Assembly (NCBI GenBank): GCA_025360645.1
Contig: JANYBT010000123.1
Coordinates: 1-32,953 of the forward strand
Reading direction: 5' to 3'
DNA from: Acidobacteriaceae bacterium
GTDB lineage: Bacteria > Acidobacteriota > Terriglobia > Terriglobales > Acidobacteriaceae
Length of the DNA: 32,953 bases
Shown here: positions 648 through 28,463 of the stretch, one piece after another
How the letters are laid out: each line of letters opens with the position of its first letter
Position numbering within the stretch: position 1 is the first letter of the stretch
Made by a program: the position numbers and the translations under genes
Notes under the pieces: model-generated
The model's input: the letters and a program-made list of their open reading frames with translations, nothing else
What the model was told of the DNA's origin: nothing
Databases searched by the model: none

Positions 648-2006
648 ATGTTTGAAAATCTCCAGGAAAAACTGCAACGCGCGTTCAAGAGCCTGCGCGG
701 TCAGGCGGTGTTGAGCGAAGAGAACATTACCGAGGCTCTGCGCGAGATCCGCGTCGCCCTGCTTGAGGCAGACGTCAACTTCAAAGTGGTCAAAGACCTG
801 ATTGACCGCATTCAGGCCAAGGCGGTCGGCGCGCAGGTCATGACCGCGCTTTCGCCCGGTGAGCAGGTCATCAAAATCCTGCGCGACGAGCTGGTGGAAA
901 CCCTTGGCAAAGACACCGCCAAGATGAAGTTTTCGTCGCAGCCGCCGTCGGTGATTCTGATGGCTGGTCTGCAAGGCTCGGGCAAAACCACCACCTCGGG
1001 CAAGCTGGCGAATTGGTTGAAGCAGGGCGGGCACCGTCCGCTGCTGGTGTCGGTCGACGTGTACCGTCCCGCGGCGCGCGAGCAGTTGAAAGTGGTGGCG
1101 CAGGCGATCAAGGCGCACATTTATGAAGGCGAGGTCGGGGAGGCCAACACCGCCACCGTCGAACGCCTGGCCAAGGAAGCGCGGCGCGAGGCCATCATCA
1201 CCGGCTGCGACGTACTGATCGTCGACACCGCCGGCCGCTTGCACATCGACGAGCAGTTGATGGACGAGATGCAGTTGCTCAAGAAGCTGCTCAACCCGTC
1301 CGAGATCCTGTTCGTGGCCGACGCCATGACCGGGCAGGATGCGGTGCGCTCCGCCGATGAGTTCCACAAGAAGCTGACCCTGACCGGCGTGGTGCTGACC
1401 AAGATGGACGGCGATGCTCGCGGCGGCGCGGCGCTCTCGATTCGCCAGGTGACCGGGCAGCCCATCAAGTTCATTGGCATCGGCGAAAAATACGATGCGC
1501 TGGAGCCGTTCCACCCCGACCGCATTGTCAGCCGCATTCTAGGCATGGGCGATTTGCTGTCGTTGATTGAAAAGGCCGAGCAGCAGATCGACAAGAAAAA
1601 AGCGCAGGAAATGGCGACCAAGGCGCTCAGCGGCGACGGTTTTTCGCTGGAGGACTTTCGCGAGCAACTGCGCCAGGTCCGCAAGATGGGGTCCATCAAG
1701 AGCATCCTCGGGATGCTGCCCAGCGTGGGCCCGCTGGCCGGCATGCAAAAAGCCGCCGACCAGGTGGACGAAAAGCAGATCAATCGCGTGGAAGCGATCA
1801 TCGACTCCATGACCCAGCACGAGCGCCTGCATCACGAAGTGATCAACGGCAACCGGCGTAAACGAATTGCCCGCGGCTCAGGGACGAGTGTGCAGGAAGT
1901 AAACAACCTGCTGCGGCAGTACGCGCAAATGCGCAAGATGTTCAAGCAGATGGGAAAACCCAGCTTCGCACGGCGCATGGCAGGGATGAAGATGCCGGGA
2001 AGGTAG
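648..2006 (+). CDS. ffh: Signal recognition particle GTPase Ffh (SRP54)
   Basis: The 452-aa product is the protein subunit of the signal recognition particle. It binds signal peptides of nascent membrane proteins together with 4.5S RNA and docks with FtsY at the membrane. The order is an N-terminal helical N domain (residues 1-90), a G domain with P-loop GLQGSGKT (107-114), DTAGR (193-197) and TKMDG (251-255), then a methionine-rich M domain. The M domain carries the RNA-binding stretch RRKRIARGSGTSVQEVN (403-419) and ends in KQMGK and MAGMKM. Length is normal for the family. The ATG start gives the canonical MFENLQEKL. No Shine-Dalgarno sequence is evident. The position just ahead of the rpsP operon is a common bacterial arrangement, here interrupted by a repeat and a peroxiredoxin-like gene. 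Confidence 0.97.
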   Translation: MFENLQEKLQRAFKSLRGQAVLSEENITEALREIRVALLEADVNFKVVKDLIDRIQAKAVGAQVMTALSPGEQVIKILRDELVETLGKDTAKMKFSSQPPSVILMAGLQGSGKTTTSGKLANWLKQGGHRPLLVSVDVYRPAAREQLKVVAQAIKAHIYEGEVGEANTATVERLAKEARREAIITGCDVLIVDTAGRLHIDEQLMDEMQLLKKLLNPSEILFVADAMTGQDAVRSADEFHKKLTLTGVVLTKMDGDARGGAALSIRQVTGQPIKFIGIGEKYDALEPFHPDRIVSRILGMGDLLSLIEKAEQQIDKKKAQEMATKALSGDGFSLEDFREQLRQVRKMGSIKSILGMLPSVGPLAGMQKAADQVDEKQINRVEAIIDSMTQHERLHHEVINGNRRKRIARGSGTSVQEVNNLLRQYAQMRKMFKQMGKPSFARRMAGMKMPGR

Positions 2007-2013
2007 AAGGACG

Positions 2014-2270
2014 GTTGCCAGTTGCCAGTTGGCAGTTGGCAGTAGCCAGTTTCAAGTTTCGAGTTAGCAGTTTCGAGCTGCTGGTTTCAATAGTCGAAAA
2101 AGGGCGACCTGCTCTCCCGTGCCATTCCCAGACCTCAGGAGCTAACTTGCCCTTCAATCTTGAACTTGAAACTCGAACTTGCAACTTGCAATTCGAAACT
2201 CGAACTCGAAACTTGAATCTCGCAACTCGAACTTGCAACTTGCAATTCGAAACTTGAAACTCGAAACTGT
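2014..2270 (+). repeat. Low-complexity inverted repeat array (CTTGAAACTCGAA words)
   Basis: The left arm (2014-2090) is built from words such as GTTGCCA, GTTGGCA and TTTCAAG. The right arm (2155-2270) is built from ACTTGAA, ACTCGAA and ACTTGCA, the opposite strand of the same kind of word. A perfect 15-nt inverted match pairs 2048-2062 with 2247-2261. The right arm also holds a 31-bp direct repeat (2170-2200 and 2224-2254, period 54). A roughly 65-bp core between the arms (about 2091-2154) is of ordinary complexity. The array fills the space between ffh and the next gene and ends 4 nt before that gene's ATG. Any frame read through it gives low-complexity protein, so it is not taken as coding. 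Confidence 0.85.
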
Positions 2271-2274
2271 ATTC

Positions 2275-2967
2275 ATGAAGTGGCGCGGGCTCGAAGAATC
2301 GGCGGCTGGGACGGACATGCGTCCGCTGCGGGAGATTTTCGCCGAGCGCAAGCTGCTCATCCAAAAATATGTGCCGGCAGACATCCTGACCCTGCACGCG
2401 GGTGTTATCGCCGGTCTCAAGCAGGCCCGCCTGGCTGCGCTCAGTCTTCAAGCGGGCGAGAAAGCTCCCGCATTCGAACTCAAGGACCACAGCGGCAAGT
2501 TGGTCTCGTCCGCGGACCTGCTCGCGACGGGGCCGCTCGTCATCTGCTTCTTTCGCGGCCGGTGGGATTCATTTTGTTGCGGCCAGATGGAAGCCATGAA
2601 CGCGGTGCTGTCGCAGATTACCGGAGCCGGAGCCGGGCTGGTCGGCATCTCGCCCCAAACGGTGCAGCAGTCGTTCTTCATGGCCGATCAGCACAAGCTC
2701 GGCTTCCCGCTCTTGAGCGATGCCGGCAACCGGGTGGCTCGCGCTTTTCGGCTGGTTTACCAGGTGCCGGAAAATCAGAAGGCAATCTATCAGCGGGCCT
2801 TCGTCAATCTGCCGTTCGTGAACGGGGATGCCAGCTGGGAACTGCCGATTCCTGCGACCTACGTGGTTGATCGCGGCGGGACGGTGCGGTTTGCCTCGCC
2901 GAATGAAGATTATACCGAGCGGCCCGAACCGGCGGAGATTGTCCAGCGATTGCTATCCTTGCCGTGA
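2275..2967 (+). CDS. Peroxiredoxin-like (AhpC/TSA fold) protein
   Basis: The 230-aa protein has a thioredoxin-like peroxiredoxin fold: GEKAPAFELKDHSGK (61-75), the active-site strand FFRGRWDSFCCGQ (92-104), ISPQT, the FPLLSD turn and a late IPATYVVDRGG strand. It probably reduces hydroperoxides or acts as a thiol reductase in the cytoplasm. The usual RGxWCPxC site is changed: Asp replaces the first Cys and a Cys-Cys pair (101-102) follows. About 60 N-terminal residues precede the fold. The frame stays open further upstream through the repeat array, but that part is low-complexity. The ATG at 2275 is chosen as the first start outside it, and ATG 2317 (MRPLREIF) is an alternative. The peroxiredoxin-like assignment is secure, the substrate is not. 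Confidence 0.8.
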   Translation: MKWRGLEESAAGTDMRPLREIFAERKLLIQKYVPADILTLHAGVIAGLKQARLAALSLQAGEKAPAFELKDHSGKLVSSADLLATGPLVICFFRGRWDSFCCGQMEAMNAVLSQITGAGAGLVGISPQTVQQSFFMADQHKLGFPLLSDAGNRVARAFRLVYQVPENQKAIYQRAFVNLPFVNGDASWELPIPATYVVDRGGTVRFASPNEDYTERPEPAEIVQRLLSLP

Positions 2968-27274: not shown

Positions 27275-27835
27275 ATGTCTATCCCCGCCACCCAGCTACG
27301 CCCGGGCATGATCATCAAGCACAATAACGAACTACATTCGGTGTTCAGCGTGGAACACCGGACGCCTGGCAACCTGCGGGCGTTCATCCAGGCCAAGTTA
27401 CGCAACCTGCGTACCGGGGCCATGTTTGAGCACCGTTTCCGCTCGCCCGACCCCATCGAACGGGTGGTGGTGGACGACGTGGATATGGAATATCTCTACA
27501 GCGACGGCGACGACTACTACTTCATGAACACCCTGAACTTCGAGCAGACCAACCTGACGCGGGAGATTCTGGGCGACAGCGTGGATTACCTGACCGCGAA
27601 CCTGCAAATCAAAGTGGAGTTCTTTGACGGCAAGGCGGTGGGCATTGAACTGCCGCAGACCGTGGAATTGACCGTGATCCAGACCGAGCCGGGGATCAAG
27701 AGCGCCACCGCATCCAGCGTCAGCAAGCCGGCCAAGACGGAAACCGGCCTGGTGGTGCAGGTGCCGCCGTTCATCAATGAGGGCGAGAAGATCAAAGTGG
27801 ACACCTCCGATGGGGCCTACCTCTCGAGAGCCTGA
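27275..27835 (+). CDS. efp: Translation elongation factor P (PGNLR loop)
   Basis: EF-P rescues ribosomes stalled at polyproline by reaching the P site. The 186-aa protein has three beta-barrels: an N-terminal KOW-like domain (1-65), a middle OB domain (67-125) and a C-terminal OB domain ending VQVPPFINEGEKIKVDTSDGAYLSRA, the EF-P signature. At the tip of the first domain, where E. coli has PGKGQ with modified Lys34, this protein has PGNLRAF (31-37), with Asn33 in the lysine position and Arg at 35. Lysylation by EpmA is therefore not expected; modification, if any, would be different. It has an AAGGAG site and its own leader. Confidence 0.93.
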   Translation: MSIPATQLRPGMIIKHNNELHSVFSVEHRTPGNLRAFIQAKLRNLRTGAMFEHRFRSPDPIERVVVDDVDMEYLYSDGDDYYFMNTLNFEQTNLTREILGDSVDYLTANLQIKVEFFDGKAVGIELPQTVELTVIQTEPGIKSATASSVSKPAKTETGLVVQVPPFINEGEKIKVDTSDGAYLSRA

Positions 27836-27837
27836 AA

Positions 27838-28172
27838 CATTTGGTAATTTAATAATTTGGTAATTTGGTAATTTGGTAATTTGAAAACTCCCCAGGCTGG
27901 ATTTGGTGGTTTGGCAATTTAAGATTTCCAAGCTGATTTGGAAGTTTCGTAATTTAACGATTCCAGCGGCTGGTTTAGCAGTTGGGTTACCAGATGAGTT
28001 GCAACCTTGACCCCATCAGCTCGGGGTTTTTAAATTACAAAATTACCAAATTACCCAATGCCTCGCGCTGGTTCAAGTCGAATTGGTACCAGATGAGTTG
28101 CAAGGTTGACCCCATCAGCTCGGAATTTTTAAATTACAAAATTGCCAAATTACTAAATTACCCAATTACCAA
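27838..28172 (+). repeat. AATTTGGT-word inverted array with duplicated 99-bp core
   Basis: The left arm (27838-27883) repeats TAATTTGG; the right-hand parts repeat AAATTACC. A perfect 13-nt inverted match is 27854-27866 with 28040-28052. Between them a unit with TACCAGATGAGTTGCAA and TTGACCCCATCAGCTCGG occurs twice (27988-28024 and 28087-28123), period 99. Each unit ends in ACAAAATT(A/G)CCAAATTAC followed by (A/C)AATGCC, and the second CAATTACCAAATGCC supplies the acyP start codon. No gene lies here. Confidence 0.85.
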
Positions 28173-28463
28173 ATGCCTTCGTCTCTCCTAGCTCGCCGTT
28201 TTGTAGTGCGCGGGCGTGTGCAAGGAGTAGGCTTCCGGTGGTTTGTGGAGCGGGAAGCGCACATCCTCGACATCGCGGGCTGGGTGCGCAACAACTCGGA
28301 CGGATCGGTTGAGGTACTGGCCATGGGGACACACGAGCAGTTGGCGGGGTTGCGGTCGCGGCTGCGTGAAGGATCGCGAGCGGCGCGGGTGGACGACGTC
28401 CAGGAGTCGGAAGCCGAGCCGGTAGCGGGACTGAAAGCATTTCGAATCGAAGGAGCCTGGTGA
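28173..28463 (+). CDS. acyP: Acylphosphatase
   Basis: This 96-aa enzyme hydrolyses acyl phosphates. The catalytic Arg is in VRGRVQGVGFRWFV, and the catalytic Asn in GWVRNNSDGSVEVLA; both are intact. Length is typical. The ATG lies at the edge of the preceding repeat array, and no Shine-Dalgarno sequence is visible. The next gene, apt, begins immediately after the stop (TGAGTG), so the two are probably one transcript. Confidence 0.93.
   Translation: MPSSLLARRFVVRGRVQGVGFRWFVEREAHILDIAGWVRNNSDGSVEVLAMGTHEQLAGLRSRLREGSRAARVDDVQESEAEPVAGLKAFRIEGAW

What the first reader, a model, noticed from the sequence alone, without database searches (positions are those of the whole stretch)
2014..2270. Low-complexity inverted array between ffh and a peroxiredoxin gene
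Degenerate 7-8-nt words built around CTTGAA/CTCGAA fill two opposite-strand arms around a core of normal complexity. A perfect 15-nt inverted match joins 2048-2062 with 2247-2261. It is neither an exact tandem repeat nor a known insertion sequence, and its right arm ends 4 nt from a start codon. It may fold into a long imperfect hairpin in the mRNA leader or be an arrested simple-sequence expansion.
Basis: partly seen in the sequence, partly recalled or inferred. Interest (0 to 1): 0.6.

Follow-up and report, generated by a model that had tools for sequence, protein, structure and literature searches.

The report
Swappable hairpin arrays after stop codons
The odd stretch between two genes is one of many hairpin-forming arrays of sloppy 7-letter words that often sit just after stop codons in these bacteria, and close relatives can carry a different word in the same slot, which suggests that position and hairpin shape matter more than the letters.

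Summary
Window 2014-2268 is an inverted pair of degenerate 7-nt arrays between ffh and a peroxiredoxin gene; its RNA fold beats 200 of 200 shuffles (z -4.9), and the word pattern occurs 89+87 times in the genome against 0+1 for the reversed control. It belongs to something larger. In 823 sampled gene gaps period 7 is significant in 88 and period 8 in 28 (about 13 expected each); periods 5, 6, 9, 10 and 11 give 7-19. Words differ between loci. Two-armed arrays mirror word order in 26 of 34 cases, and same-strand ones start within 10 nt of the stop codon in 25 of 29. At one gene gap, relatives, even within one genus, carry different words, 8-nt arrays, GC palindromes or nothing (at least 11 and 8 changes of type at two gaps on a 19-species tree). 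One family is copied around a genome (43 near-copies of a 28-mer). Best reading: fast-turnover hairpin elements in slots after stop codons, spread by copying and kept paired by DNA fold-back copying, probably acting as intercistronic or 3'-end hairpins. Closest known kind: convergent heptamer repeats of Xanthomonas. Function and maker are inferred, not shown.

The parts
648..2006 (+). ffh (SRP54) gene upstream
   Evidence: SRP54, SRP54_N and SRP_SPB Pfam matches
2014..2090 (+). left arm, degenerate heptads (GTTGCCA/GTTGGCA/GTTTCRA); begins 7 nt after the ffh stop codon
2091..2151 (.). core of normal complexity, not repeated elsewhere in the genome
   Evidence: search with 2090-2158
2152..2268 (-). 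right arm, the same kind of heptad on the opposite strand; ends 6 nt before the next ATG
2048..2062 (+). one side of the perfect 15-nt inverted match (partner 2247-2261)
   Evidence: read directly
2247..2261 (-). other side of the perfect 15-nt inverted match
   Evidence: read directly
2159..2268 (.). 54-nt tandem doubling (91% matches) inside the right arm
2275..2967 (+). peroxiredoxin (AhpC-TSA) gene downstream; this ATG is supported by relatives that align from residue 1
27839..27889 (+). second inverted array, left arm, 8-nt word (ATTTGGTA), 3 nt after the efp stop codon
28032..28059 (-). second inverted array, inner right arm (AAATTACC)
28124..28174 (-). second inverted array, outer right arm (AAATTACC)
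27275..27835 (+). efp (elongation factor P), gene before the second array
28206..28463 (+). acylphosphatase, gene after the second array (this start is my gene finder's choice)

Best explanation
The stretch is one member of a large, fast-turnover class of hairpin elements: two mirrored arms made of degenerate 7-nt (or 8-nt) words around an unrelated core, lodged between consecutive genes with the left arm starting right after the upstream stop codon. SHOWN here: period, inverted architecture, mirrored word order, position after the stop codon, presence/absence and change of word between close relatives at one site, and one multi-copy family inside a genome. INFERRED: (1) new elements arrive as copies of resident families and replace or nest in older ones; (2) the arms are kept matched at the DNA level by fold-back (template-switch) copying, with slippage changing arm length; (3) in the cell the transcribed hairpin acts as an intercistronic or 3'-end structure (protecting the upstream message, uncoupling neighbouring cistrons), so that slot and shape are kept while the letters are free. 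Step 3 is the weakest.
For: Period 7 significant in 88 of 823 gaps and period 8 in 28, against 7, 16, 19, 10 and 18 for periods 5, 6, 9, 10 and 11 (about 13 expected each); period 7 together with an inverted repeat 24, 10.7 expected. Genus of G027: period 7 in 52 of 318 gaps, periods 5, 6, 8-11 in 4-9 each (62 of these gaps, those of G027, are also in the 823). Mirrored word order: block-shuffle P<=0.05 in 26 of 34 two-armed arrays. Left arm starts within 10 nt of the stop codon in 25 of 29 same-strand two-armed cases, 12.9 expected. ffh-prx gap: arrays in 7 of 13 genera in which prx follows ffh, words differing (all seven significant); in the genus of G027, 10 of 11 readable species by eye, three of them with one arm, five clearly different words; efp gap 7 of 30 loci. 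Arms of one locus resemble each other (mean score 20.6 at ffh-prx, ten array-bearing species; 17.6 at efp, seven) more than the same arm does between species (9.6 and 9.4). At least 11 type changes on 19 species at rplK-rplA and at least 8 on 17 labelled species at rplJ-rplL. Copies: 28-mer with up to 3 mismatches 43 in G027, 23 in G061, 7 in G062, 1 in G071, control 0; 16 of 20 inspected copies begin 0-11 nt after the stop of an open frame of at least 60 codons, such a stop being within 25 nt of 19% of random positions. Arrays with an inverted repeat by orientation: 27 of 564 same-strand, 3 of 112 convergent, 1 of 147 divergent gaps.
Against: No transposase or other agent found. G-U-type and A-C-type mismatches are equal in same-strand arms (94 and 92; 53 and 60 in the strict set), so nothing shows selection on the RNA strand. 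Six of 13 genera have no array at ffh-prx (several of those gaps are very short), so the hairpin is dispensable. Many arrays have one arm: 31 of 112 array gaps have a significant inverted repeat, and in an earlier test of 66 single arrays 17 had an inverted but 14 a direct partner above shuffles. Of seven orthologous gaps with at least four congeners, three had no period-7 array in any. Ends at start codons are not enriched for two-armed arrays. At one site (gap 32,33) same-arm similarity between species (22.5) exceeded arm-arm similarity (18.6), though that comparison included conserved promoter flank.
Confidence: 0.5

Rival explanations
1. Neutral mutational debris: polymerase slippage with a 7-nt preference, plus fold-back copying, turns unconstrained intergenic DNA into such arrays. 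No function and no mobility; they end at stop codons only because coding DNA resists them.
For: Equal G-U-type and A-C-type mismatches; few or none in some genomes' samples; 54-nt doubling in the right arm. A polymerase-footprint idea for heptamers is cited in PMC4692102 (Discussion read).
Against: The same ordered 28-mer with one odd heptad occurs 43 times in G027. Words of both arms differ between close species at one site. Debris should often leave native sequence between stop codon and array, but 25 of 29 two-armed same-strand arrays start within 10 nt.
Confidence: 0.27
2. REPIN- or MITE-type mobile elements moved by a transposase in trans (for instance the Y1/RAYT enzymes present in these genomes); position and function are by-products.
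For: Conserved arms with unrelated cores, tens of copies, copy number differing among congeners. Y1_Tnp counts correlate weakly with array rate (Spearman 0.51, P 0.03, 18 genomes; with AGTTTCR hits 0.40, P 0.05, 25 genomes).
Against: Of 30 Y1_Tnp loci inspected (of 47 listed in 9 genomes; some at contig ends) none has a 7/8-nt array in its 300-nt flanks by my detector; 20 have flanking inverted repeats above shuffles, mostly GC-rich palindromes. No fixed tag or target duplication was established.
Confidence: 0.15
3. Repeated binding sites for a sequence-specific DNA- or RNA-binding protein with a 7-nt step, each word read by its own factor.
For: Array gaps resemble each other more within a genome than between genomes: scores of at least 20 in 47 of 903 against 178 of 11658 pairs (some of these pairs share other elements). 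The AGTTTCR word recurs in several phyla.
Against: Words change between congeners at the same site; mirrored order of degenerate variants is not needed for binding.
Confidence: 0.05
4. Intrinsic transcription terminators.
For: Hairpin directly after stop codons.
Against: No terminator-like site on the + strand in 1850-2450; several arrays lie between genes that are likely in one operon (ffh-prx, rplK-rplA, rplJ-rplL).
Confidence: 0.03

Closest known systems
GGGAATC / GGGGA(C/T)T heptamer repeats of Xanthomonas and Nostoc (Rehm et al. 2015, PMC4692102; abstract, sections 10, 14, 16 and passages read)
   Same: 7-nt degenerate units, dispersed, intergenic, mostly between same-strand genes, under-represented between divergent genes, convergent inverted pairs (70 and 75 cases), sense copy near the stop codon or antisense copy near the next start.
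   Different: That paper follows one G-rich, quadruplex-forming word; 83% of sites keep a G-rich repeat between two species. Here the words are not G-tract words, there are many per genome, both arms can carry another word in a congener, and 8-nt versions and GC palindromes share the slot.
TAACTGA direct repeats of Beggiatoaceae, Cyanobacteria, Bacteroidetes (MacGregor 2015, PMC4679880; abstract and section 10 read)
   Same: Intergenic heptamer arrays, indels in 7-nt steps, related species with empty gaps.
   Different: One word, direct repeats (one indirect repeat in the main genome), mostly just before start codons there (more varied in other species); here inverted pairs anchored at stop codons with many words.
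REP / REPIN elements with RAYT or TIRYT transposases (PMC3733652; search listing and passages read; PMC3116915 and PMC8049555 seen in listings only)
   Same: Dispersed hairpin elements in intergenic DNA.
   Different: Heptad arms; not found beside the Y1 transposases inspected here; letters change at a fixed site.
Template-switch hairpins (Monttinen and Loytynoja 2022, PMC8794818; abstract and opening of introduction read)
   Same: A replication error that makes or repairs reverse-complement arms in one event.
   Different: Described for RNA genes; not linked to heptad arrays or stop-codon slots in the part I read.

Membership tests
Xanthomonas/Nostoc G-rich heptamer repeats | 7-nt degenerate tandem unit, dispersed, intergenic | tested here: met
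Xanthomonas/Nostoc G-rich heptamer repeats | convergent inverted pairs, sense arm close to the stop codon | tested here: met
Xanthomonas/Nostoc G-rich heptamer repeats | antisense copy close to the next start codon | tested here: inconclusive
   all same-strand arrays 23 of 86, 16.7 expected; two-armed 9 of 29, 14.5 expected
Xanthomonas/Nostoc G-rich heptamer repeats | G-tract unit able to form quadruplexes | tested here: not met
   words AGTTTCR, AGTTGCC, TTTGGTAA have no run of three G
Xanthomonas/Nostoc G-rich heptamer repeats | same unit kept at the same gene pair in relatives | tested here: not met
   (some species do share a word, e.g. seven of 17 labelled at rplJ-rplL)
TAACTGA repeats | unit TAACTGA as direct repeats | tested here: not met
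   words and inverted layout
REP/REPIN with RAYT | dispersed inverted doublets forming hairpins | tested here: inconclusive
   AGGTCAG family of G027: 9 of 20 inspected copies show the partner arm by a pattern within 190 nt
REP/REPIN with RAYT | same repeat flanks the tyrosine transposase gene | tested here: not met
   0 of 30 inspected Y1_Tnp loci (of 47 listed)
REP/REPIN with RAYT | GTAG or CGTC end tag | not tested
   no systematic scan of arm ends
MITE | terminal inverted repeats with target-site duplication | tested here: inconclusive
   inverted arms yes; filled and empty sites seen but duplications were not looked for
Intrinsic terminator | GC stem followed by T-run on the gene strand | tested here: not met
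   window gap only
Known structured RNA | Rfam match | tested here: not met
   0 matches up to E 1 in 1900-2500

The most novel reading that the evidence does not exclude
Bacteria of several phyla carry a letter-blind hairpin system: an unknown copying activity places mirrored heptad arrays exactly behind stop codons, and the cell keeps a hairpin in the slot while its letters are replaced again and again, so that function rests on shape and place alone.
Probability: 0.2. Interest if true: 0.85.

Novelty: new variant of a known kind. Interest (0 to 1): 0.6.

Why it matters
It would turn a scattered curiosity (heptamer repeats, in the papers I read discussed in terms of quadruplexes or a translational regulator) into a general, letter-independent class whose common traits are period 7, mirrored arms and the stop-codon slot. 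The congeneric series gives natural swaps of hairpin type at one position (rplK-rplA, rplJ-rplL, ffh-prx), so what such hairpins do, and how they are made, becomes directly testable. It also warns that such gaps give short fake reading frames: an 80-codon open frame, 2015-2257, spans this array.

Tried and rejected
RAYT mobilisation: weak correlation of counts, but no array beside the 30 inspected Y1_Tnp genes of 47 listed. Genome-wide lag spectrum: lag 7 is raised in non-coding DNA by only 0.77% (z 4.6), lag 6 by 0.80% and lags 1 and 3 as well, so arrays fill little of the intergenic DNA and this test did not single out 7; per-relative spectra were mostly unremarkable; the gap-by-gap test replaced it. 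RNA selection by G-U excess: none. Promoter or terminator in the window gap: none on the gene strand. Rfam: nothing. Start-codon anchoring: 23 of 86 same-strand arrays end within 12 nt of the start (16.7 expected) but 9 of 29 two-armed ones (14.5 expected), so rejected as the main rule. Papers: nine searches; among the titles and abstract openings listed I saw none on such arrays in Acidobacteria. Only the top of each listing was shown, a Solibacter genome paper (PMC3174227) was listed and not read, and most subscription journals are not held, so this is not proof of absence.

Flavobacterium isolates among the records show that such arrays are not only an assembly artefact. The 34 two-armed arrays were chosen from 64 gaps with a significant inverted repeat, which favours mirrored arms. 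One search compared only array-bearing species (one-armed ones at ffh-prx left out). In one search eight rplK-rplA slots were labelled GC palindrome, four by the automatic test and four by eye; G072 at rplJ-rplL was relabelled by eye, G067 there left unlabelled; the tree is a quick one with four poorly supported forks. No arrays were found in the samples of G010, G012, G021 and G028 (0 of 13 gaps each), but G010, G012 and G021 do have AGTTTCR matches elsewhere (30, 19 and 14) and G028 has 170, so an empty sample is not an empty genome.

Full report
What is there. Between ffh (648-2006) and a peroxiredoxin gene (2275-2967) lie two arms of degenerate 7-nt words on opposite strands, about 2014-2090 and 2152-2268, around a core that is unique in the genome. 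The fold is far better than shuffles (z -4.9, 0 of 200). The right arm holds a 54-nt tandem doubling. A second inverted array with an 8-nt word lies between efp and acylphosphatase in the same window (27839-28174).

It is common. The word pattern of this array occurs 89+87 times in the genome (reversed control 0+1), 37 of 61 genomes had a match, with totals from 0 to 176 inside the family. A word-free test on 823 gene gaps (319 of the own genome, the rest from 21 relatives) found period 7 significant in 88, period 8 in 28, and periods 5, 6, 9, 10, 11 in 7, 16, 19, 10, 18, with about 13 expected by chance for each. In coding DNA mainly multiples of three stand out. Rates differ by genome: period 7 in 17 of 49 gaps in G001 and 11 of 62 in G027, but 0 of 13 in each of G010, G012, G021 and G028, although all four do have AGTTTCR matches elsewhere; G016 and G018 had none in either call.

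Anatomy. Words differ from locus to locus. In two-armed arrays the order of word variants is mirrored: shuffling the blocks of one arm lowers the arm score with P<=0.05 in 26 of 34 cases (mean z 3.0; the set was chosen for a significant inverted repeat). In same-strand gaps the left arm starts within 10 nt of the upstream stop codon in 25 of 29 (12.9 expected), while the right end is not tied to the next start codon (9 of 29, 14.5 expected). Arrays with a significant inverted repeat: 27 of 564 same-strand, 3 of 112 convergent, 1 of 147 divergent gaps; so most array gaps (81 of 112) pass only the period test. In an earlier test 17 of 66 single arrays had an inverted and 14 a direct partner above shuffles.

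Turnover. At the ffh-prx gap, 7 of the 13 genera in which prx follows ffh have an array, with different words (all seven significant; several of the six others have very short gaps). In the genus of G027, whose ffh proteins are 88-90% identical to our query, 10 of 11 readable species have an array right after the ffh stop codon (by eye; three with one arm only), with five clearly different words, and one (G071) has none; 6 of 6 that fell into the automatic orthologue table were significant, while of the seven gaps in that table three had no period-7 array in any species. The efp gap has arrays in 7 of 30 loci, again with different words, one of them nested: one inverted array inside another. 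Among array-bearing species the arms of one locus resemble each other more than the same arm does between species (20.6 against 9.6 at ffh-prx; 17.6 against 9.4 at efp), although three ffh-prx species share a word and score 16-25 with each other; a third site gave the reverse (18.6 against 22.5), but its comparison included conserved promoter flank. In rplK-rplA the slot between the rplK stop codon and a conserved leader holds, among 20 congeners, heptads in 5, octads in 4, GC palindromes in 8 and nothing clear in 3 (four of the eight palindromes labelled by eye; 4 of 24 genomes searched had no rplA match). On a tree of 19 of these species the type changes at least 11 times; at rplJ-rplL, with 17 species labelled, at least 8 times. 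In one gap two species lack the array (59 and 75 nt against 110-167 nt), and a species with one word still shows what looks like an arm remnant of another (G069, my reading). G069 at rplK-rplA keeps a short scar that fits deletion between arms (my reading).

Copies. In G027 a 28-mer of four heptads, one of them odd, occurs 43 times with up to 3 mismatches, 23 times in G061, 7 in G062, once in G071, control 0. Of 20 copies read, 16 start 0-11 nt after the stop of an open frame of at least 60 codons; at random positions of the same stretches such a stop lies within 25 nt in 19%. Seven have a stop triplet directly before the arm (4% at random), and 9 show the partner arm within 190 nt by a loose pattern. 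Cores look unrelated to each other, and several hold an inner array (by eye). Array gaps within a genome score 20 or more in 47 of 903 pairs, between genomes in 178 of 11658; some of the best within-genome pairs share other elements such as GC palindromes, so this is only a rough measure.

How it may work. Copies in order, whole-word swaps and nesting point to arrival of complete elements. Mirrored order points to copying of one arm from the other on DNA, as in template switching (PMC8794818, abstract and opening read). G-U-type and A-C-type mismatches are equal (94 and 92; strict set 53 and 60), so base pairs are not visibly repaired by selection on the RNA; with such fast turnover there may be little time for it. 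Occupation of one slot by heptads, octads or GC palindromes alike suggests that a hairpin behind the stop codon is what is kept, most likely as an intercistronic or 3'-end structure. That last step is inference; free slots in some species show that it is not essential.

Known relatives. Xanthomonas heptamers share period, degeneracy, convergent pairs and placement, but the paper follows a G-rich word that is kept at 83% of sites between two species (PMC4692102, sections 10, 14, 16). TAACTGA repeats are direct and, in the main genome of that paper, mostly sit before start codons (PMC4679880, abstract and section 10). REP-type elements differ in unit, and of 30 Y1 transposase loci inspected none had a heptad array beside it, while 20 had flanking inverted repeats, mostly GC-rich (such terminal repeats beside tyrosine transposases, also in Koribacter, are described in PMC3733652, passages read). 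An inverted-AGTTTCR pattern found 38 stretches in named genomes, among them Acidobacteria/Pyrinomonadaceae, Flavobacterium isolates, Phycisphaerales and others. Of these, 21 lie between same-strand open frames, 3 convergent, 1 divergent, 9 inside a spanning open frame, 4 at contig edges; 9 of the 21 lie within 13 nt of both neighbours by a crude open-frame rule (my count).

Verdict. Function and maker remain to be shown.

Noticed in passing
window 27985-28155: Inside the second inverted array a segment of about 65 nt (ACCAGATGAGTTGCAA..TTGACCCCATCAGCTCGG plus part of an AAATTAC arm) stands twice, about 100 nt apart.
   Followed up: no
L275-L304 (Y1_Tnp loci): 20 of 30 inspected RAYT-like tyrosine transposase loci have flanking inverted repeats, mostly GC-rich such as GCCCAGCGCTTCAGCGCTGGG, as described for TIRYTs in PMC3733652.
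   Followed up: partly
L201, L152, L159, L192: Another intergenic hairpin family, TTGTCATCCTGAGCGAAGCGAAGGA with its inverted partner, recurs in gaps of several genomes.
   Followed up: no
L152 726-974; L256; L274: Nested inverted arrays: an AGGTCAG array with a GAGCTACG-like array in its loop, at several loci of one genome (by eye).
   Followed up: partly
L317 (G070) and L318 (G074), rplJ-rplL gap: These arrays look like 8-nt versions of the 7-nt AATTTGT arrays of their congeners, hinting that unit length can drift.
   Followed up: no
L075 (G000:C16): This 2-kb contig of the own genome reads only N, so it was left out of the gap and array counts.
   Followed up: no
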